62,561 nt of DNA from Cyanobacteria bacterium SIG27 (GTDB taxonomy: Bacteria > Cyanobacteriota > Vampirovibrionia > Gastranaerophilales > Gastranaerophilaceae): positions 1 through 62,561 of the forward strand of contig SUTT01000007.1 of assembly GCA_015152565.1 (NCBI GenBank), given 5' to 3'. The number at the start of each line of letters is the position of its first letter. Position 1 is the stretch's first letter. This document shows positions 271 through 62,503 of this stretch, in pieces. The notes below the pieces were generated by a model. The model worked only from the letters and a program-made list of their open reading frames with translations. It made no database searches and was not told where the DNA came from. Both the position numbers and the translations under genes were made by a program.

Positions 271-2334
271 ATGAACATCAATTTTGAATCTCTTAAAGTA
301 GAATTTAAAGAGTATTTAGAAAGTTTAGGCATTAAACCCAAGCTCAACGAAGATGATGAGCTTACGAGTGCTAGCATTTTTACATACAGCAAACAATTCA
401 AAGAATTTATAAATGAAGAATACGACATCAATTTAGAAAAAAATAAATTAAATTTTTCTGAATTATTGGATAATGAAATCAAAGACGGAAAATTTGTACT
501 GCCAGAAGAAAATTCAAACAACCAAGATGAAAACTTCATGTTGGAGCTTTTAAACGGCTTATTTGAAGAAGAAGAATTTGCGCAAAACATTGATGAAGAT
601 GGAAAAGATGGGCTAAGCGAAGAAGAAATAAAAAAATTCCTTACTTTTTCAAACGAACAAAACTACAGAGATGATGAAGAAGAATTTTCATTTGATGATT
701 TAGAAAAAGGCTTTCAAAAAGTAGAAGATGGCAAATATGATGCTTCTAAAATCAATCTTGAAGAAAATGAACAAATTGAAGCAGCAACCTCTTCAGCAGG
801 AGCCTCAGGAGGCGGTAGCGCTGGTGGCGGATATAGTGGCGGTGGCGGAACTACGAACACGGCAAACACTGCAAACACAACAGCCAACACCACTCAAGAT
901 GCCGATGTGGATTATAGCCAAATGTCTAAAGAAAAACTTGAAACTGCTTACAACGAGCAACAATCCACCATTTCTGCAAAATCTCAAAATGTGAACACTG
1001 TAATGACCCAAAATCAAGCAGATATTGCAAAAGCAAAAGAAGAATATGACAAAGCCATAAGCCAAGATAACATTGACCCGGCGCTATTAGCAAGCAGAGA
1101 TGAAAATCTAAATGCAATCACTCAAACAGATACACAAATAACTCAACTTAGCACACAAATAAATGACTTAGATGTACAAATTACATCTTATGAGTCATAT
1201 ATATCAGCTCTTGATGCCAATATATCAGGTCTTCAAGCTGCGCTAGCCTCGCTATCCAACGCTCCTGCTGATGATGAAGAAGCGCAACAAGCAATTGAAC
1301 AAAAACGTACAGACATCAATCAACAGATAACATCGCTAACACAAGACAAAGAAACAAAAACAGCAGAAAAACAAAAGCTTGAAGCGCAAAAGCAACAAGC
1401 TCAAACAAGCCTTGATGAGTGCAATACCAAATTAAGCGAATTAGAAACTGCAAGAACAGAAATTGAACAGAAAATTACACAAACCTGCAATGAAGCGACT
1501 AAAGCTGCTATTGAAAAATATAATACAGCTCGTGAAACCGCAAGCACAAACCTTCAAGCTGCAAAAGATACACTAAACACCGAAAAAGGGAAATTAGAAG
1601 AAATTAAAACCTATTTAAATAAATCATACGAAGAATCTATGATAGATGAATATGGTTATAGCGAAAAAGGCGACGTTTTCATACCTTATGAAGGCTATAG
1701 CGAAGTTACAGATATCGAAAAAACAAATATGGATTATAAAGTCCTTATGGCAAATGGTGCAGACGTAGATAAAGAATTACCTGTTATTGTCTTTTTACAT
1801 GGCGCAAATGGAAGCAAAAATTCACTACAAAATCAAGCGCTTAACCCCGAAAGACTTGCAGCAGACGGCGTTACAACCAGCTTTAATGGTTATATAATTT
1901 GTCCTACCATGGGTGGAAATTGTGAAACTGCTGCTCAAAATATTGATGAAATATTGAATAGTTTTTCTAAAAACCACAAAATTGATAAAGACAATATTGT
2001 TCTTGTTGGCTATAGTAACGGCGGAACCTATGCAGCAGGAATTGCAAACAGCACCACATTTAATGATGGAAACGGGTATCAATTCTCTAAAGTTGCGCTT
2101 TTAACAGGCTACACTAAACAAAAAACATCTTTCAACATCCCTGTTGGCATTTGGGTTGATGGAACTTCAACTGGCTTAAAAAATACTATTGAATATGATG
2201 AAAGCCAAGGCGACAAATTTGTTGATTGGTCTAAAAGTAAAACTCATTACGACATGGAAGATGATGGCTTTAGAGAAGACTCTAACGGCGATGGTAAATC
2301 AGACATGATTCAATGGTTATTTAATGATGAATAA
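271..2334 (+). CDS. Coiled-coil protein with EF-hand-like loop and C-terminal alpha/beta-hydrolase domain
   Basis: This 687-residue protein has no recognised name. An acidic helical N-terminal part contains an EF-hand-like loop at residues 108-119 (Asp108, Asp110, Asp113, Glu118/119). A Gly/Ala/Thr/Asn-rich linker follows at about 170-210. A long coiled coil rich in Gln, Thr, Lys and Glu covers about 215-455. The C-terminal 190 residues look like an esterase or dienelactone-hydrolase-type domain: an HGANG oxyanion-type motif at about 510, a nucleophile elbow Gly-Tyr-Ser582-Asn-Gly, and His659 as the likely catalytic histidine. A second Asp/Asn-rich calcium-like loop lies near 672-680. No signal peptide or membrane segment is visible. 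The gene converges on the kinase-like gene, with two bases between the stop codons. The catalytic role is inferred from motifs, and the substrate is unknown. Confidence 0.8.
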   Translation: MNINFESLKVEFKEYLESLGIKPKLNEDDELTSASIFTYSKQFKEFINEEYDINLEKNKLNFSELLDNEIKDGKFVLPEENSNNQDENFMLELLNGLFEEEEFAQNIDEDGKDGLSEEEIKKFLTFSNEQNYRDDEEEFSFDDLEKGFQKVEDGKYDASKINLEENEQIEAATSSAGASGGGSAGGGYSGGGGTTNTANTANTTANTTQDADVDYSQMSKEKLETAYNEQQSTISAKSQNVNTVMTQNQADIAKAKEEYDKAISQDNIDPALLASRDENLNAITQTDTQITQLSTQINDLDVQITSYESYISALDANISGLQAALASLSNAPADDEEAQQAIEQKRTDINQQITSLTQDKETKTAEKQKLEAQKQQAQTSLDECNTKLSELETARTEIEQKITQTCNEATKAAIEKYNTARETASTNLQAAKDTLNTEKGKLEEIKTYLNKSYEESMIDEYGYSEKGDVFIPYEGYSEVTDIEKTNMDYKVLMANGADVDKELPVIVFLHGANGSKNSLQNQALNPERLAADGVTTSFNGYIICPTMGGNCETAAQNIDEILNSFSKNHKIDKDNIVLVGYSNGGTYAAGIANSTTFNDGNGYQFSKVALLTGYTKQKTSFNIPVGIWVDGTSTGLKNTIEYDESQGDKFVDWSKSKTHYDMEDDGFREDSNGDGKSDMIQWLFNDE

Positions 2335-2336
2335 TT

Positions 2337-4820
2337 TTAGCTAAACAATTCAAAATTTAAATTCAAACAGCTAAAAGCATGCTCTGGATTTTTTGTAATA
2401 AATTTAATTCTTGATGACAATTCTTTCATTGTGTATAGCGGAGCTTGTTTGAAAGATTTCATCGTAGAGCGTGACATTTCCTTAATTAATTGTTTGATAA
2501 TACGTTTTTTATCAATTGCCTTTGAAATATCATATCCGCAACCATCCGCAATTCGTCTTAAACAACCAAGATTAGATAAAATATAGGTTTCTTCCGCTTT
2601 CATTTGGTTGATGTTTGTAGCGTTTGGAATAATGTTATTTCTTCTCATATATTCTATACAAAAATCATTTGCAGCTCTAAAAATTTCAATAGGATTTTTT
2701 GTATCGATTTTCGTATCGCAATTAAAGATATTATTTTTTAATTCTAAAGACAATGATCTAACTTCGTCTTCTAAGTTTTTACCATTTAAATCTGCACCGC
2801 TTAGCAAGTTTCTTGCAATTAAATCGGTGTTTCCAAATAAATAATCGATATGATTAAATAAATTTTTAGCTGCAACTTTTCTTGTTGTTTTTATGGTATT
2901 TCCATAATCAATTATCGTAATAGGTGTGCTTTTTTTATCTTTTAACCCTTTTATTTTAGCTAAATCAACCAAAATATTTCCACCATGTGGATCTGATTGG
3001 ACAACTTTCTGTGCTTCGTCAGGCAAAGCAAACAATTGTTCACAATATGCAGCAATATAATTATCTACAAAATTAGAAAAATCTTGCTCATCAAGCCCTG
3101 CTTCTTGCCATTTAGCTGCAATATCATCACTATCTAATTGAACTCCTTGAGCTTTTTGCATAATAAAGATGCTTCTTTTTGCATCAATCGGTTCAATTGC
3201 TTGATATTTTGTTGCTTGAGCTTTGATTTGACCTGCGCTAATGGCTTCTTGCGATAAATCAGTTTCTTTCTCCCAAACTTGACACATATTTTCAACTAAA
3301 TTTTTATCATAGGTTTGATGTTCAGTACTAAAAATAGTGTGTTTTTGAGGTCCAAAAGTAATATAAAAACCTTCTTTAATATCGCTTTTATCTTCAATTT
3401 TTTTCATTAAAGCTTTTTTATCTTTTTCAACTTTTTTGCCATCTTCAAATTGCTTTTTAAGCAATTTAACAACAACTTCGTTTCCATCGGAATCTTTTGC
3501 AAGATATGATTCAGCAATTGAGCCAACCCCTAAAAGACCGTCTTTTTTGCCGCCACGAACAATGGTATATTTACCGCTGCCATAAATGCCGTCAATAATT
3601 CCTTGCGCATCATCAACGCTTCTTGAAGCAGGGCAATTGCTTTTTATTTTTCTTATAATTGCTTGATAATCTTTTAAACCCTCCAGGCTCCAATTTTTCT
3701 TTTCAAACCTTTCAAAAGCTTCATCAAGCGCATAGTTTGTAACGTAATTTCCATCTTTCAACCATCTATTTTGATTTTTTTGAGCTTCTCTTCCGGCTAT
3801 TATTTCATCAATTTGTTTGCATAATTTTTCTTGTAGCTCATCAGGAATATCCATTATTGTTTGAAAATATTTTGGCAAGAAAATGTTCATTTCTTCTAAT
3901 TTTCTCATTTTGCCTTCAATATTTCCATCTTGTCCTTTTTCAAGAAGGATATCCATTAACTCTTCATCTAATTTAACAGCTTCAGAAAGATTAACTTTGC
4001 CATTTTCTTTATCAATTAAAATGCTTAAATCAAACCCAAGATCACGAGCCAACGATTGGAATTGAGTTAAAGAGTCTTCCGGCATAGTATATTTTACACA
4101 AGAAGCAGCATTCACTTTTGCTTTTTGTATAATTTTTTGAATTTTATCAATTTCACGTCCATTTTTAAGTGCACCTAGCGTCAAAACCGAAAAAGCAGCA
4201 ATATCAATTATAAAATTATCTGCATGTTGTTTTATAAAATCAGACATGGACGGTTCTTTGTTTTCATTATTTGAAGCATAACTCACAAACGCATTTGAAA
4301 CAAAAGCCAAAGGTGCTAATGGTGCAAAATTAGTAATCAAAGCTGCGCCAATACCATTTGATAAATTAGACTTCCAATTATTTTTGTTTTCTTTTTTGTC
4401 TTCTTTAGTTAGAGTTAAATTATTTATCCCATTTAAAACCGGACGAATTAAAAAACTTGCAGCAAATGGAATTGCAAAATTAAGCGCTTTTAGGGCTTTT
4501 GTTGATTTTGAATTAGACATATTTGAAGCAAACATATCTACAAAAGTTATACCCTTTTTAGCTAATGCGCCAACGGTAAAAGCACCAAGAGTAGTCAAAG
4601 TATCGAGTGTTAAATCTTTTGCAACTTGCGGCTGTTTTGATTTTTTAAAAAGTTTTTCTAATAAAGTTTTTGATTTATTACTATTACTGTTTTCAAAACT
4701 ATCGTCTTCGATTGGTTTTGTTGCAGTATTTATTTGATGTTTCAAAGGCTCATCAGCCTTAACATCAACTTTATTAAATTCTGGAATATTAAAGTTTTTA
4801 TAAATTAATTTTTCTTCCAT
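2337..4820 (-). CDS. ABC1/UbiB-like atypical kinase with hydrophobic N-terminal region
   Basis: The protein has 827 residues. From about residue 400 it matches the ABC1/AarF/UbiB atypical kinase fold: a glycine- and alanine-containing nucleotide loop (GVGSIAESYLA), Lys452 in VVVKLLK, a catalytic-loop motif SDPHGGN with His612, and a metal-binding Asp638 in IIDYGN. Most family members have SDPHPGN and DFG, so both motifs are slightly changed. The first 60 residues are polar. Residues about 70-240 hold several hydrophobic stretches that may cross or sit in the membrane. UbiB relatives act in quinone biology in respiring bacteria, but that role is doubtful here and the substrate is unknown. It is divergent from the helical-repeat gene at 4908. 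Confidence 0.75.
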   Translation of the reverse strand: MEEKLIYKNFNIPEFNKVDVKADEPLKHQINTATKPIEDDSFENSNSNKSKTLLEKLFKKSKQPQVAKDLTLDTLTTLGAFTVGALAKKGITFVDMFASNMSNSKSTKALKALNFAIPFAASFLIRPVLNGINNLTLTKEDKKENKNNWKSNLSNGIGAALITNFAPLAPLAFVSNAFVSYASNNENKEPSMSDFIKQHADNFIIDIAAFSVLTLGALKNGREIDKIQKIIQKAKVNAASCVKYTMPEDSLTQFQSLARDLGFDLSILIDKENGKVNLSEAVKLDEELMDILLEKGQDGNIEGKMRKLEEMNIFLPKYFQTIMDIPDELQEKLCKQIDEIIAGREAQKNQNRWLKDGNYVTNYALDEAFERFEKKNWSLEGLKDYQAIIRKIKSNCPASRSVDDAQGIIDGIYGSGKYTIVRGGKKDGLLGVGSIAESYLAKDSDGNEVVVKLLKKQFEDGKKVEKDKKALMKKIEDKSDIKEGFYITFGPQKHTIFSTEHQTYDKNLVENMCQVWEKETDLSQEAISAGQIKAQATKYQAIEPIDAKRSIFIMQKAQGVQLDSDDIAAKWQEAGLDEQDFSNFVDNYIAAYCEQLFALPDEAQKVVQSDPHGGNILVDLAKIKGLKDKKSTPITIIDYGNTIKTTRKVAAKNLFNHIDYLFGNTDLIARNLLSGADLNGKNLEDEVRSLSLELKNNIFNCDTKIDTKNPIEIFRAANDFCIEYMRRNNIIPNATNINQMKAEETYILSNLGCLRRIADGCGYDISKAIDKKRIIKQLIKEMSRSTMKSFKQAPLYTMKELSSRIKFITKNPEHAFSCLNLNFELFS

Positions 4821-9774: not shown

Positions 9775-10029
9775 TTACACTAATGTGTTAATTTTGTTTT
9801 CAGTGTTTAATCCTTTTTCAATTGAAATTTGTCTTTTTAAGAATGTTTCATAAAACAGTGGAGATTGTTTAATTGTTCCCAAGAAATCTGTTAAGAAACT
9901 TGCTTCTCTTGAAGAGCTTGTATTGTTGATTACATCTGCTCCGTAGTTAGATTGAACACCAGCTTTGAAGCTTATATTTTTATTATTAATTGTACTTTGT
10001 ACATTTTTTATTGAGCTAATTGTTAACAT
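9775..10029 (-). CDS. Small protein with N-terminal ISFKAG motif
   Basis: This 84-residue protein has no recognised family. The start reads MLTISSIKNVQ and the motif ISFKAG lies at residues 19-24. A similar short motif occurs early in five other proteins of this window (33280, 58311, 58632, 61257, 62228). The rest is polar with one amphipathic stretch (FLTDFLGTIKQSPLFYETFLKRQ). There is no signal peptide or membrane segment. A near-consensus promoter lies upstream at 10097-10125 and a terminator follows at 9684-9721, so it is a well-defined monocistronic unit despite its size. Confidence 0.75.
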   Translation of the reverse strand: MLTISSIKNVQSTINNKNISFKAGVQSNYGADVINNTSSSREASFLTDFLGTIKQSPLFYETFLKRQISIEKGLNTENKINTLV

Positions 10030-33279: not shown

Positions 33280-33912
33280 ATGAAAGTTAACAGCATTAAT
33301 CAACAAACAAATAAACAAAATTTTAAAGGCAAAGATAATGTCTTTCAAAAAACCGTAAAATTTATTGCCGACAAACCAAAAACAATCGCAATGCTAGCAG
33401 GTTCATCTGTTGTAGCACAAAAAATCGTTATGTCAGGTTCAGAAGCAATTGTTGGACCAATTATGGATGTTGGGATTGGTCAAGCTATAACAAAAGTTAC
33501 AAACGAAAAAGATGGCAGAACTAACGATAGTTCAAAAGCACAAGCCATAAGAACATTCGCTCAAGCAACAGGTGGTACAATTGTTGGCGTTGCAGTTCGT
33601 TTAGCTTGTATCGGGGCTGCTACTGCCGCTATCACTGCTGCTTGCGCTAAAGGTGGCGGAAAAATTGCCGAAGAAGTTGCAAAAAAAATTAATCCTGAAA
33701 ATTTAAATCCTGAAAAATTAGTTGATAAATATGGATTTGACAAAAAAATGACAGATTGGGGCAAAAGCATTGGCGGAGCTTTGGCTATCGTTGTTATGCT
33801 TGTAACTAATTTTTTAATTGATGCTCCATTTATCAATTGGATTAATGGAAAAGTTACTCAAATGATTGATAAAAAAGCAAACAATCAAGAACAAACAAAG
33901 GAGGCTAAATAA
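33280..33912 (+). CDS. Membrane protein with N-terminal NFKG motif
   Basis: This 210-residue protein starts MKVNSINQQ and has NFKG at residues 14-17. Hydrophobic or Ala/Gly-rich segments lie at about 35-60, 103-130 and 165-185. A charged linker (EKDGRTNDSSK) and a basic polar tail complete it. No family is recognised. Its stop overlaps the next start (TAATG), so the two proteins are made together and may form one membrane complex. Confidence 0.72.
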   Translation: MKVNSINQQTNKQNFKGKDNVFQKTVKFIADKPKTIAMLAGSSVVAQKIVMSGSEAIVGPIMDVGIGQAITKVTNEKDGRTNDSSKAQAIRTFAQATGGTIVGVAVRLACIGAATAAITAACAKGGGKIAEEVAKKINPENLNPEKLVDKYGFDKKMTDWGKSIGGALAIVVMLVTNFLIDAPFINWINGKVTQMIDKKANNQEQTKEAK

Positions 33913-58310: not shown

Positions 58311-58601
58311 TTACGCATATATTACAACATCAGGATCAGCTACTTTTGCTGCGGCGTATGCTGCTAAAAATCTAGCATAGTAGTCTGTGCGCTCTGACAT
58401 AGCACCATAAATATCCATATCTCTATATTTATAAGATTGTATATCACCATTTGAATCTTTATAAAGCAATTCATATTGACTAATGTCGACTATTTTATCT
58501 GCGTCTACTACATTTGGTTTTTCATAAGCTGAATAATAGCTGTGATTTAAATTAATCTTTCCCCTAAATGGAGTTGAAGCGATAATTGGTGTAATTTTCA
58601 T
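58311..58601 (-). CDS. Small protein with N-terminal PFRG motif
   Basis: This 96-residue protein starts MKITPIIASTPFRGKINL, with PFRG at residues 11-14. The rest is hydrophilic, with Tyr-rich patches (YYSAYEKP, YKYRDMDIYG) and a C-terminal AYAAAKVADPDVVIYA. There is no signal peptide. It sits four bases from the envelope protein gene, convergent with it, and 30 bases after the paralog at 58632, so they may be in one minus-strand unit. Function unknown. Confidence 0.72.
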   Translation of the reverse strand: MKITPIIASTPFRGKINLNHSYYSAYEKPNVVDADKIVDISQYELLYKDSNGDIQSYKYRDMDIYGAMSERTDYYARFLAAYAAAKVADPDVVIYA

Positions 58602-58631
58602 AATTGTTTCCTTTTATTTTTAAATTATCAT

Positions 58632-59402
58632 TTATTCTTCAATTTGTGATTCAAAATATTTCCCAAATGCATATAAATAATGTTTTGATATTGGATCAAC
58701 GCAAAGTGCATATTTAAAAGCAAGCTCTGCTGCTTCTTTTTCTGATGTAGAATCATCTTGAATGACTTCTAATAAAATTCTATTTAACTTTTGTTCATCA
58801 TTCAAGCTAGCTTGTTGTGCTAACGTATCTCTTGTTGTTCTGGTGCCTTCAAAAAAACGATGCTCTGCGTAACTGTATGTACTATTAGCCCAACTGTCAT
58901 TTAAAAATTGTTTTTTAGACTCAACTTTTTTTAACTTTTCTAAAACCATTAATGCATCTTGAAAAGATAAGAAATTTTTAAGCGGGCCATCAATGCTTCT
59001 ATCAGTCCTAAATTCATCACCAATTCTTTTGTAACATCGACATCCAAGCAATTCAAAAAGCTCATCGTCAGTTTGTGGAATTTCTAATAACTCTTTAATT
59101 TTACCTTTTCCAATAGCTATATTAACATATTCTTCATTATAAACTTTTCTTCTTTGCTCTTCGGTTGAAGAACCAATTATCTCTTGTCGTCCTTCCTTAT
59201 CTAAAGAAAGAAAAGTATCAAATTTTCTTTCTTCAAAAAAAACATTTGCTATATCGTTGCGTGCATTATCTATAACACTTTTTGGAATAGTTGCACCAAA
59301 AGAAACACTATCACTTGCCATTGGTTTTAATCTTGACTGGGTTTGAATTTTATTATTTTTAACTTGATTGTTTAGATTAAACGATATTGGAGATAATTTC
59401 AT
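58632..59402 (-). CDS. Motif protein, paralog 1 of a duplicated pair
   Basis: The start ATG at 59402 (MKLSPISF) is chosen by comparison with paralog 2 and because GAAAGG lies upstream. The 256-residue protein has the N-terminal pattern MKLSPxSFNLNNQ...KPMASDSVSFGATIPKSV with VSFGA at 33-37. The rest is helical and acidic with no recognised domain. It matches the gene at 61257 in its N-terminus and overall plan (mid region with LLNC/LLGC, C-terminal IILEVIQDxET). Promoter regions are also duplicated. Confidence 0.78.
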   Translation of the reverse strand: MKLSPISFNLNNQVKNNKIQTQSRLKPMASDSVSFGATIPKSVIDNARNDIANVFFEERKFDTFLSLDKEGRQEIIGSSTEEQRRKVYNEEYVNIAIGKGKIKELLEIPQTDDELFELLGCRCYKRIGDEFRTDRSIDGPLKNFLSFQDALMVLEKLKKVESKKQFLNDSWANSTYSYAEHRFFEGTRTTRDTLAQQASLNDEQKLNRILLEVIQDDSTSEKEAAELAFKYALCVDPISKHYLYAFGKYFESQIEE

Positions 59403-59507
59403 TTTTAACACCTTTCAACACTTATTGACTATATAAAGCTCATCAACACAAAATTTTGCGCGCAAAATCGTTTTTTTTTTTTTTGAAATTTTACATAATT
59501 TAATAAA
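59403..59507 (-). promoter_or_regulatory. Duplicated upstream region of paralog 1
   Basis: This region matches 62076-62179. A stretch of 35 bases near the gene differs at six positions, all transitions. A block of 37 bases, T14 (59471-59484) plus 23 bases (59485-59507), is identical in both. A perfect palindrome TTTTGCGCGCAAAA lies at 59454-59467. The A14 tract on the transcribed side might be an upstream promoter element. Confidence 0.7.
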
Positions 59508-59527
59508 TCTATAAAAAGCATCCTTTA

Positions 59528-59749
59528 GTGAAAAAATGCAAATATTTCGATAATAGGATTTATTATCTTTTGCCTAATGATGATATTAGAAAAGAATTAA
59601 ATATTACGTTTACAAAACAACTTGCCTTACTGAAAAATTTGCAAAAAGCAAAGATGATTGAGTTAAAATTTGAAGTCAACAAAAAAAACGTATGTTTTAA
59701 TTTGTTAGAGAATAAAATTCCTTGCCAATATTATTGTTACAAAAAGTAA
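59528..59749 (+). CDS. Small winged-helix-like protein or gene remnant
   Basis: This 73-residue frame starts at GTG. The sequence IYYLLPNDDIRKELNITFTKQLALLKNLQKAKMIELKFEVNKK has the rhythm of a winged-helix domain as in some replication initiator proteins, but no sure match. It may be a remnant of a mobile element. It stands between two motif-protein genes on the opposite strand, 11 bases upstream of a set of direct repeats. Confidence 0.4.
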   Translation: MKKCKYFDNRIYYLLPNDDIRKELNITFTKQLALLKNLQKAKMIELKFEVNKKNVCFNLLENKIPCQYYCYKK

Positions 59750-59759
59750 CGAACTTGAC

Positions 59760-59867
59760 TTTTATGGTGCATTTATGGTGCAAAATTTTTTATGATAAAG
59801 ACAAAATAGCGTATTTCAAAGCATTTCAACACAATTAAAAATAATTTTATGGTGCATTTATGGTGCA
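59760..59867. repeat. Two 23-base direct repeats made of the 11-mer TTTATGGTGCA
   Basis: The word TTTATGGTGCA occurs four times: twice in tandem at 59760-59782 and twice at 59845-59867. Both 23-base blocks are identical and start with one extra T. They are 85 bases apart. The second block is directly next to the stop codon of the AlbA_2 gene. The arrangement resembles recombinase arm sites or iterons. Confidence 0.65.
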
Positions 59868-61193
59868 TTAGTTATTTAGAATATATTTGAGTGTTTTTTT
59901 ATCGCCCTGAGTTTTTAAAATTTTTAATTCAACCAATTTTTTCAAATCTCTTTTGCTAACATCTCTTGAACAAGTATTGATTTCCTGATATTTGCTATTT
60001 GTTATATCCCCATTAATGGTAATATATCTAATTGCATTTTCTTGTCGAATATTAATATTGTTATATTTTTTATTAATTTGCAATATAAAACCACTATTTT
60101 TTAATTTAAATTCAGGAGCAGGCAAGCCCTGTTTTATGCAGGCGGAAGTCATACGCTTAATACCTGTGCCAAATTGCTCTACATATCCTGCCTTATATAT
60201 CACATCCATAATCAAAGGGTTTCTTGGTCTTGACGGATGGTGTAAATCTTTTAAGTCTTCTATTGTAAGTCCACCAAATAAGTCTCCATTATTATAAAAC
60301 CAAATATGATCATCAAATATTTTTATTTGTATTTCCGAATTATTATCAAAATAATCTTTGTGTATTAATGCATTTAATAAGGCTTCTCTTATTGCAACTA
60401 ATGGATATTCCCAAATCTCTTCTCTGACAAAATCTTTTATATTATATTTAACTTTAATGAAAGATTTAATAGCTGTTTCTGCTTCTTTAAATTGGTTAAA
60501 AAGATTACCAGAAATAACTTTATCTCCAATAATTAAATCTTCATCATTGCCTTTAAACAAGCCTATTCTCACATTGGCTTTTTTAAATAATTTTTGCGGA
60601 TTTTTGCCAAAAAGCATTACAGCTGCATTTGTTAATTTTCCATCAATTATTAAATCTAGATGTTTAAATAATTCTTCAACAGAATATGTTTTTACTTCTT
60701 GTGCTAATCTATTTTTAGTTTCATTTGTGGCTAATTTTATAAAAAAATTCACTGAATCAACATCAATGTCTTCAAGTGTGCAATTATTATTTAAAGAATC
60801 CCAATTGGTGTCTTTTAATAACATCTTTCTTGCTTCTTCTCTTGAAGCAAGTCTGGTTGTATCACCAATTCTTTTATAATATTTTCCTTTTATCTGAATT
60901 GGATTAGAAGATTTTTCAACCATTATCTTTAAAACATATTTGTCTTTTATTTGATGTAATTGAATATCTGGTTGAATTCCTAATAAGTCCACACATTTAT
61001 TTGCAATAACTGATTGAATGTCAGTCGAATTAAGCCCAACTACTTCTTTTGTTTTATCTTGTATTCCAACTATAATACATCCACCATTAGTATTGGAAAA
61101 AGCAGAAATAGTCTCATATAATGCTTCATTATCTTTTTCTTTGTATTCAACTGTACTACATTCTGCCACTAGCTTATTTAGACTGGTTTCCAT
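59868..61193 (-). CDS. AlbA_2/Schlafen-type ATP-binding regulator-like protein
   Basis: This 441-residue protein starts with an AlbA_2 (Schlafen AAA_4) domain: VEYKEKDNEALYETISAFSNTNGGCIIVGIQD, then YKRIGDTTRLASREEARKML. The second part has the GHKL-like module AIREALLNALIHKDYFDNNSEIQIKIFDDHIWFYNNGDL and PSRPRNPLIMDVIYKAGYVEQFGTGIKRM. A C-terminal winged helix ends the protein. Such proteins are common in genomic islands and may act in phage defence or regulation, but the role is not established. It interrupts the paralog pair. Confidence 0.82.
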   Translation of the reverse strand: METSLNKLVAECSTVEYKEKDNEALYETISAFSNTNGGCIIVGIQDKTKEVVGLNSTDIQSVIANKCVDLLGIQPDIQLHQIKDKYVLKIMVEKSSNPIQIKGKYYKRIGDTTRLASREEARKMLLKDTNWDSLNNNCTLEDIDVDSVNFFIKLATNETKNRLAQEVKTYSVEELFKHLDLIIDGKLTNAAVMLFGKNPQKLFKKANVRIGLFKGNDEDLIIGDKVISGNLFNQFKEAETAIKSFIKVKYNIKDFVREEIWEYPLVAIREALLNALIHKDYFDNNSEIQIKIFDDHIWFYNNGDLFGGLTIEDLKDLHHPSRPRNPLIMDVIYKAGYVEQFGTGIKRMTSACIKQGLPAPEFKLKNSGFILQINKKYNNINIRQENAIRYITINGDITNSKYQEINTCSRDVSKRDLKKLVELKILKTQGDKKTLKYILNN

Positions 61194-61256
61194 AATCTTA
61201 TAATAACAAAAATAATTATTTGTGTAAATTAAAGAAAATAGTTGTTTTAGTTACTA

Positions 61257-62075
61257 CTAGTTAATTTGCGATTTTAAATATTTTTCTAATTCTTCAAAAT
61301 ATAACGTGTCATAAAAAGTAAAAAATCTATTTCCATACAGACTTATAAGTTTCAGCGCTTCTTCGTTAGTTGTTTCTTCGTCTTGAATAACTTCTAAAAT
61401 AATATTTCCAAGCCTTTTTTGTTCTTGTTCAGTTGGTAATTTAAAAAATTTTTTATAGCATTTTGAATAATCTTCTGATTTTGCAATTCTATTCATTTTT
61501 TCTGCGTATGTTTCATGGAAAGTGGCATAAAAACAACCATCATTATTCTCGTAAGTGTATTCACCTAATAAAAGTTGTTTTTTATTAGGTGTTTTTAATC
61601 TTTCTAAAACTGCAACAAAATCGGAAACAGATAACATCATTTTAAGGGGTCCTCTAAATTCTTCACCTCGTATGCGCCAATCTAAGATGTTGCAGTTTAA
61701 TAATTCCATAAGTTCAGAATCATTTTTAGCAGTTTGCAATATTAAATGTATTTTATTTTTGCCAAATGCTTCATTGAGAACTGCTTCATTTGTACAAAAA
61801 GTTTTTCTTGCTTTATCATCTGCTTCTTGTAGTGCTTTTGCTATAATTTCATCATCTTGTATAAAAAACTCTCTCAAACACGCTCTTCTATAGGAATTTT
61901 CAGAATCCAAAAATCCAAGCAAAGCATTATTTGAAGCCTCTTGAAAAACACTTTTTGGAATATTTGCACTAAAAGAAACCGAATCAAAAGCCATTGGTTT
62001 TAATCTTGGCTGGTTTTGGATTTTGTTATTTCTAGTCTGATTATTTAAATTAAACGATACTGGAGATAATTTCAT
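61257..62075 (-). CDS. Motif protein, paralog 2 of a duplicated pair
   Basis: The start ATG at 62075 (MKLSPVSF) is chosen because GAAAGG lies just upstream. The frame start at 62093 is a GTG that overlaps this site. The 272-residue protein has MKLSPVSFNLNNQ and KPMAFDSVSFSANIPKSVF, with VSFSA at 33-37, followed by helical sequence. C-terminal pieces (NIILEVIQDEETTNEEALKLI) match paralog 1. Function is unknown and there is no signal peptide. Confidence 0.78.
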   Translation of the reverse strand: MKLSPVSFNLNNQTRNNKIQNQPRLKPMAFDSVSFSANIPKSVFQEASNNALLGFLDSENSYRRACLREFFIQDDEIIAKALQEADDKARKTFCTNEAVLNEAFGKNKIHLILQTAKNDSELMELLNCNILDWRIRGEEFRGPLKMMLSVSDFVAVLERLKTPNKKQLLLGEYTYENNDGCFYATFHETYAEKMNRIAKSEDYSKCYKKFFKLPTEQEQKRLGNIILEVIQDEETTNEEALKLISLYGNRFFTFYDTLYFEELEKYLKSQIN

Positions 62076-62179
62076 TATTAAACCTTTCAACACTTGTTGA
62101 TTGTATAAGGTTTATCAATGAAAATTTTTGCGCCAAAAACCGTTTTTTTTTTTTTTGAAATTTTACATAATTTAATAAA
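62076..62179 (-). promoter_or_regulatory. Duplicated upstream region of paralog 2
   Basis: This is the second copy of the region at 59403-59507. The tract T14 lies at 62143-62156, followed by the same 23 bases (62157-62179). The central palindrome is imperfect here (TTTTTGCGCCAAAAA). Conservation of non-coding sequence shows that gene and promoter were duplicated together. Confidence 0.7.
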
Positions 62180-62227
62180 ATAAAAATTATATTTGTTTTT
62201 TATGCGATAAAAAAGTACAATGCAAGT

Positions 62228-62503
62228 ATGATTAAAGCAATTTCACCAATAACTTTCAAAAGTGCAAATAAAAAACCATTACCGTCGCAAACTCCTCAAT
62301 CAAAATATATTCAAGATAATTTTGAGCAGTTAAATAAAAAATGGGATACAATTTCAACAAATATTGGTTTAGGTGTTGGAATAATTAGCGAGATTATGGG
62401 CAAAAATAAATCTATTTTAAAAGGACTTTTAGCCGGTGTTATTGTTTGGATGTGTGGCATTGTTTACGATGGATACAAAAACGCAAATCAAAACAAAGAT
62501 TAA
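62228..62503 (+). CDS. Small membrane protein with N-terminal ITFKSA motif
   Basis: This 91-residue protein starts MIKAISPITFKSANKKPLP, with ITFKSA at residues 8-13, again the short motif seen in five other proteins of the window. A polar stretch follows and then one hydrophobic segment at about 62-80 (LKGLLAGVIVWMCGIVYDGY). A short polar tail ends it. No family is recognised. It is divergent from paralog 2. Sequence to the end of the window (62504-62561) is AT-rich without a gene. Confidence 0.72.
   Translation: MIKAISPITFKSANKKPLPSQTPQSKYIQDNFEQLNKKWDTISTNIGLGVGIISEIMGKNKSILKGLLAGVIVWMCGIVYDGYKNANQNKD

What the first reader, a model, noticed from the sequence alone, without database searches (positions are those of the whole stretch)
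58311..62503. Six unrelated proteins share a short N-terminal F-[KRG]-[AGS] motif
Seen in sequence: ISFKAG (9775 gene, residues 19-24), NFKG (33280 gene, 14-17), PFRG (58311 gene, 11-14), VSFGA and VSFSA (58632 and 61257 genes, 33-37) and ITFKSA (62228 gene, 8-13). In each case the motif lies in the first 40 residues, after a start such as MKxxxI, with Asn, Gln, Ser or Thr around it, and there is no normal signal peptide. The proteins differ after the motif (small soluble, membrane, helical). Inference: a shared targeting, processing or docking tag. Its repeated use suggests an undescribed sorting system in this lineage.
Basis: partly seen in the sequence, partly recalled or inferred. Interest (0 to 1): 0.75.

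Follow-up and report, generated by a model that had tools for sequence, protein, structure and literature searches.

The report
Shared N-terminal tag, probable export signal
Several percent of the proteins of this gut bacterium (7% in the stretches sampled), although otherwise unrelated, begin with the same two-part label of roughly 10-45 residues (MK[IV]xxI ... [IV][SN]F[KG][GA]), which is probably an address tag for a second, flagellum-like secretion machine found across its order; if that is right, it would reveal a large set of unknown exported proteins.

Summary
All six motifs are at the residues given (two of the six proteins are paralogs, so five families). In sampled stretches of the genome 28 of 397 proteins (7%) carry a two-part tag: M[KNQ][IV]x[SP][IV] at the start and, by residue 44, [IV][SN]F[KG][GA]. 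It is rare after internal Met, recurs in independent genomes of the order (54/1364 N-termini versus 3/5324 internal Met), and is essentially missing from family f8, which has no type III export genes (1/193). Codon use is diverse, so it works as protein. Both parts are conserved while the linker drifts; in the window's paralogs the tag is 81% identical, the bodies 33%. No tagged protein has a hydrophobic signal peptide; bodies are unrelated (adenylate kinase as a second copy, phosphoesterase, LOG, AAA, GNAT, TPR, LRR). The order also keeps a second, non-flagellar FlhA and a soluble FlhA-C protein, beside which tagged genes concentrate. Composition (Asn/Ser-rich, acid- and Leu-poor, Ile/Val at position 3) matches published type III secretion signals. 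Best reading: N-terminal export signal of that second type III apparatus (about 0.5). Secretion itself is untested; no known family model covers the tag.

The parts
9958..10029 (-). N-terminal tag (residues 1-24, MLTISSIKNVQSTINNKNISFKAG) of the 84-aa protein 9775-10029
   Evidence: profile score 14.8; AGAGG upstream of the start
33280..33330 (+). N-terminal tag (residues 1-17, MKVNSINQQTNKQNFKG) of the 210-aa protein 33280-33912; gene present in all 24 genomes of the genus searched, in 23 of 24 with the match beginning at residue 1 or 2
   Evidence: score 27.2
58560..58601 (-). N-terminal tag (residues 1-14, MKITPIIASTPFRG) of the 96-aa protein 58311-58601
   Evidence: score 25.5; AAAGGA upstream of the start
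59292..59402 (-). N-terminal tag (residues 1-37, MKLSPISFNL...DSVSFGA) of the 256-aa protein 58632-59402; start taken as the ATG at 59402, not the GTG at 59411; residues 1-36 modelled at low confidence, helical body from residue 41
   Evidence: (score 27.2)
61965..62075 (-). N-terminal tag (residues 1-37, MKLSPVSFNL...DSVSFSA) of the 272-aa protein 61257-62075, paralog of 58632; first 43 residues 81% identical between the two, remainder 33%
   Evidence: (score 25.0)
62228..62266 (+). N-terminal tag (residues 1-13, MIKAISPITFKSA), start half shifted by one residue, of the 91-aa protein 62228-62503
   Evidence: score 8.7, weakest of the six

Best explanation
The N-terminus is a modular, two-part, unfolded export signal: a short hydrophobic-polar start M[KNQ][IV]x[SP][IV], a variable Asn/Ser/Gln-rich linker, and a Phe motif [IV][SN]F[KRGS][GA], placed in front of many unrelated soluble bodies. 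It most likely directs them to a second, non-flagellar type III export apparatus of flagellar ancestry (FliE, FliF, FliH, FliM/N, FliO-P-Q-R, FlhA) that the order keeps even where the flagellum is lost, with the order's soluble FlhA-C protein as a possible cytosolic receptor. Shown: the tag, its conservation, its modularity, and the presence and neighbourhood of the export genes. Inferred: that tagged proteins are exported, that this machine exports them, and that the soluble FlhA-C protein or the gate reads the tag.
For: (1) Real N-terminal signal at protein level; 41 different 9-mers encode the F-x-x of 45 tags, and start codons downstream are no commoner than background. (2) Constraint on both halves with a free linker in the gene next to the soluble FlhA-C gene, MKINS[IV] ... 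PSFK[GA]; tag 81% versus body 33% identical in the window paralogs. (3) No signal peptide: 0/45 tagged versus 248/995 other proteins have an N-terminal hydrophobic stretch. (4) Composition like type III signals: Asn 13.8 versus 6.7%, Ser 9.7 versus 6.7%, Leu 5.3 versus 10.1%, acidic 6.2 versus 11.9%, Ile/Val at position 3 in 89 versus 14%. Arnold 2009 (PMC2669295) reports Ser/Thr/Pro enrichment and Leu/acidic depletion, and Samudrala 2009 (PMC2668754) reports Ile at position 3, in known effectors. (5) Machine present: all 30 order genomes searched have FlhA homologs, nearly all a second FlhA (72-73% identical between families f1 and f2, 36-38% to flagellar FlhA) and all a soluble FlhA-C protein; genera without flagellar FlhA keep both. 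(6) Neighbourhood: 30/376 genes within 2 kb of the soluble FlhA-C gene are tagged versus 22/886 further out, orthologs not removed; in L273 a tagged gene lies beside fliR in a fliM/N-O-P-Q-R ... flhA-C cluster. (7) Tagged extra copy of an enzyme: G093 has an untagged adenylate kinase next to map and a second, tagged one.
Against: No secretion data exist. Machine and tag are both order-wide, so their co-occurrence is confounded with ancestry. Families f9 and f14 have a second FlhA but hardly any tags. Tagged genes in the window are not near export genes. Published type III signals have no fixed motif, and the flagellar gate recognition motif FxxxPhi with 30 or more residues of spacing is not met (hydrophobic at F+4 47% versus 37% background; 11 of 45 Phe at position 30 or later). 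No type III chaperone, ATPase or FlhB of the second system was traced, and no secretin was found in the one operon examined. The composition contrast is partly built in, since tagged proteins were chosen by a profile.
Confidence: 0.5

Rival explanations
1. The tag is an intracellular docking peptide: its Phe motif binds a scaffold, compartment or assembly factor inside the cell, and nothing is exported.
For: Some bodies are cytosolic enzyme types (adenylate kinase, LOG, HD phosphohydrolase, CheR, AAA); a short motif with a flexible linker is typical of docking peptides (general knowledge).
Against: No candidate scaffold was found; nearby conserved genes are export genes; composition resembles secretion signals.
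Confidence: 0.2
2. The tag is an export signal, but for another route (type I, type II or pilus-related, or an undescribed one).
For: Absence of Sec-type N-termini and a duplicated, tagged adenylate kinase point to export without naming the route.
Against: VirB4 of type IV secretion is absent from the order genomes searched; no contractile sheath in this genome or its genus; substrates of type I systems usually carry C-terminal signals and those of type II Sec or Tat signals (general knowledge).
Confidence: 0.15
3. A processing or stability signal: cleavage at the Phe motif, or an N-terminal degron.
For: F[KG][GA] lies at the border between the low-confidence N-terminus and the helical body in the one usable model; the spacer is variable.
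Against: A cleavage site or degron alone does not need a conserved start half, and would not explain the neighbourhood with flhA-C.
Confidence: 0.08
4. A nucleic-acid signal (ribosome site for an internal start, recombination site) that only looks like a peptide motif.
For: Codons for FKG, FRG and FGA can be purine-rich.
Against: 41 different 9-mers among 45 tags and downstream start codons no commoner than background; the Tyr version, equally purine-rich, is not enriched.
Confidence: 0.02
5. Chance or composition in an AT-rich genome.
For: Six hand-picked examples with a loose motif would not exclude it.
Against: Enrichment over internal positions, shuffles and the Tyr control, also in independent genomes; position-specific conservation.
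Confidence: 0.02

Closest known systems
N-terminal signals of type III secretion effectors (Arnold 2009 PMC2669295; Samudrala 2009 PMC2668754)
   Same: First 20-40 residues, predicted unfolded, polar, Leu- and acid-poor, Ile favoured at position 3, no Sec signal, unrelated bodies behind it.
   Different: A recognisable shared motif [IV][SN]F[KG][GA], whereas those papers describe no classic motif; the machine is flagellum-like and its substrates are unproven.
Two-part export signal of early flagellar subunits (FlgD: hydrophobic residues 2-5 plus gate recognition motif 36-40; Bryant 2022 PMC8983047)
   Same: Two separated short elements, one at the extreme N-terminus and one downstream, with a spacer between them.
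   Different: F+4 is not hydrophobic beyond background and spacing is usually shorter (median Phe at residue 15).
FlhA, FliF and FliI orthologs of Chlamydia pneumoniae (PMC2830194, abstract only)
   Same: Flagellar export homologs kept without a flagellum.
   Different: Here a second FlhA plus a soluble FlhA-C protein across an order, and a tag on the probable substrates.
Partial flagellar gene sets in non-motile Gastranaerophilales (Soo 2014, PMC4040986)
   Different: Conservation of a second FlhA (72-73% between families f1 and f2) argues for a separate working system.

Membership tests
Type III secretion substrate (effector) | Signal in the first 15-40 residues, not in the body | tested here: met
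   a shared N-terminal element exists; that it is a secretion signal is not shown
Type III secretion substrate (effector) | N-terminus predicted unfolded | tested here: inconclusive
   residues 1-36 of 58632 modelled below pLDDT 50 with helices from 41, but from a two-sequence alignment; the nine-sequence model of the flhA-C neighbour is poor over much of its length
Type III secretion substrate (effector) | Polar, Ser/Asn-rich, Leu- and acid-poor composition, Ile/Val at position 3 | tested here: met
   against 82, 83; partly circular, as the set was chosen by a profile
Type III secretion substrate (effector) | No Sec or Tat signal peptide | tested here: met
   0/45 versus 248/995 with an N-terminal hydrophobic stretch
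Type III secretion substrate (effector) | Genome encodes a type III export gate | tested here: met
Type III secretion substrate (effector) | Export dependent on that gate | not testable with these tools
   needs a secretion assay
Flagellar early-subunit signal (gate recognition motif) | FxxxPhi at or beyond residue 30 | tested here: not met
   F+4 hydrophobic 47% versus 37% background; 11 of 45 at residue 30 or beyond
Contractile injection (eCIS) cargo leader | Genome encodes a contractile sheath | tested here: not met
   no PF04984 in this genome or its genus; 4 of 30 order genomes have one
Type IV secretion substrate | Genome encodes a VirB4-type ATPase | tested here: not met
   0 of 30 genomes
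Any catalogued sorting-signal family | A Pfam or NCBIfam model covering the tag | tested here: not met

The most novel reading that the evidence does not exclude
The order Gastranaerophilales runs a dedicated non-flagellar type III secretion system, descended from a flagellum, with its own N-terminal address code read by a soluble FlhA-C receptor, and delivers dozens to about a hundred effector-like proteins per genome (nucleotide enzymes, GNAT, TPR, LRR and repeat proteins) to the gut environment or to other cells.
Probability: 0.35. Interest if true: 0.9.

Novelty: new variant of a known kind. Interest (0 to 1): 0.72.

Why it matters
It would give a sequence-readable label for the exported proteins of a largely uncultured order of gut bacteria related to Cyanobacteria, turn what was read as an incomplete flagellum into a working secretion system, and offer a type III signal with a visible motif, which could show how such signals are recognised. 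The label alone already sorts many 'hypothetical' proteins of the order into one class.

Tried and rejected
Chance and composition (internal, shuffle and Tyr controls). Internal ribosome site or other DNA-level signal. Type IV secretion and contractile injection as the route. Membership in the FxxxPhi gate motif. Known sorting-signal models. Fold of the window paralog: no significant match in the PDB (model mean pLDDT 65.5). Model of the flhA-C neighbour too poor to use. A DNA pattern for the whole tag over 117 genomes of the class is only a coarse check: 34 in-frame open hits in 38 f1 genomes against 23 in 79 mostly larger genomes, both sets holding false positives.

Full report
Observation. 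The six motifs are exactly at the residues stated when each gene is read from the start with the best evidence; for 58632 and 61257 that is the ATG at 59402 and 62075. Those two proteins are paralogs, so there are five families. None of the six has a Pfam match above its curated cut-off.

Is it more than chance? I sampled the window's genome (G000, 1.84 Mb in 54 contigs) in stretches, called genes with a simple script, and counted. The sample is not random: some stretches were chosen because of a hit or because they hold export genes, so the 7% figure is approximate. [IV][STN]F[KRGSNE][GA] in the first 47 residues: 14 of 397 proteins, 0.5 expected from internal positions, 1 with Tyr for Phe. 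That pattern was written after looking at this genome, so the independent tests matter more. A two-part profile trained on 26 tags of G000 and applied unchanged gives 10/417 against 0/1972 internal Met in other genera of the family, 54/1364 against 3/5324 in 80 named Gastranaerophilales loci (orthologs not removed), 7/181 against 0/848 in family f7, and 0/165, 0/70 and 1/193 in f9, f14 and f8 (score 11 or more). After filtering for redundancy, start-half proteins carry F[KRGSN][GA] in 12/39 cases against 3.0 shuffled (maximum 9 of 500). An unguided enumeration ranks FGA first in G000.

What it is. Start half M[KNQ][IV]x[SP][IV]; Phe half [IV][SN]F[KG][GA], with Asn or Ser often before it and the Phe at residues 8 to 44, median 15. 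It is a peptide signal: 41 different 9-mers encode the Phe half in 45 tags. It is modular: L016:11301-12443 shares about 38 tag residues with the window paralogs and no body. It is constrained: in the gene beside the soluble FlhA-C gene in nine loci, MKINS[IV] and PSFK[GA] hold while the linker drifts; in the window paralogs 35/43 tag positions agree against 67/206 in the bodies. Tagged genes cluster: 13 adjacent tagged pairs in G000 against 1.8 after shuffling (maximum 7).

Bodies. LOG-type enzyme (L014:4373), LRR-like (L014:1520), AAA ATPase (L047:9391), RHS-repeat-like (L048:13446), calcineurin-like phosphoesterase (L295:14944), adenylate kinase (L115:18885), CheR (L112:11421), HD phosphohydrolase (L292:848), GNAT (L108:18440, L280:1201), TPR (L171:1330); most have no match. 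G093 has an untagged adenylate kinase beside map and a second, tagged one, as expected if the tag sends a copy elsewhere.

Which machine? No tagged protein has an N-terminal hydrophobic stretch (0/45 against 248/995). Each of the 30 order genomes searched has FlhA homologs; nearly all have a second, divergent FlhA, and all have a protein made of a short N-terminal domain plus the cytoplasmic part of FlhA. Genera that lost flagellar FlhA keep both. The second FlhA is 72-73% identical between families f1 and f2 and 36-38% identical to flagellar FlhA (the row labelled own_2nd in that table picked a wrong ORF and is ignored). In G000 the second flhA follows genes for SLT, FliE, FliF and FliH; in L273 genes for FliM/N, FliO, FliP, FliQ and FliR, a tagged gene and flhA-C lie together. 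Rod-like PF00460 proteins persist in genera without flagellar FlhA. Near the soluble flhA-C gene 30/376 genes within 2 kb are tagged against 22/886 further away, orthologs not removed. VirB4 is absent from the order genomes searched and a contractile sheath from this genome and genus.

Mechanism. I commit to an export signal for the second type III apparatus at about 0.5. Composition fits published type III signals, with the caveat that a profile chose the set. The two-part layout recalls early flagellar subunits, but the FxxxPhi motif and its spacing are not met, so I do not file it there. Steps inferred, not shown: export itself, dependence on this gate, and the soluble FlhA-C protein as receptor.

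Novelty. No Pfam or NCBIfam model covers the tag, and the few paper searches run here, in an open-licence library only, turned up no description of it. Soo 2014 treated the flagellar genes of non-motile members as an incomplete set. I rate it a new variant of a known kind because the likeliest function, an N-terminal signal for type III export, is known, while the shared motif and the setting are not.

Noticed in passing
L047:6789-8240 (G000:C52) and L212-L241: A soluble protein with a short N-terminal domain fused to the cytoplasmic part of FlhA, about 480-500 aa, found in all 30 order genomes searched and aligned over nearly its full length.
   Followed up: partly
G093:C1:398960-399523 (L332, L115): A second adenylate kinase with the tag, in a genome that also has an untagged copy beside map.
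   Followed up: yes
L149:16917, L150:4289, L151:17895 (f9); L153:16289 (f14): A few polar N-termini with F[ASKN][AG] motifs in families outside the order that have the second FlhA; possibly a diverged tag, not shown to be significant.
   Followed up: partly
window 271-2334 and L003:126-464: Large protein whose C-terminal part looks by eye like an alpha/beta hydrolase; a similar ending lies beside the tagged gene L016:11301. No Pfam match for the window protein.
   Followed up: no
window 59868-61193: Gene between the two tagged paralogs that looks by eye like an AlbA/Schlafen-type regulator; not searched.
   Followed up: no
window 2337-4820: 827-aa protein with an ABC1 atypical kinase domain, without a clear tag.
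   Followed up: no
L009:12610, L047:12807, L250:5750: Very large proteins (604-1088 aa) with a type IV pilin-like N-terminus, seen by eye.
   Followed up: no
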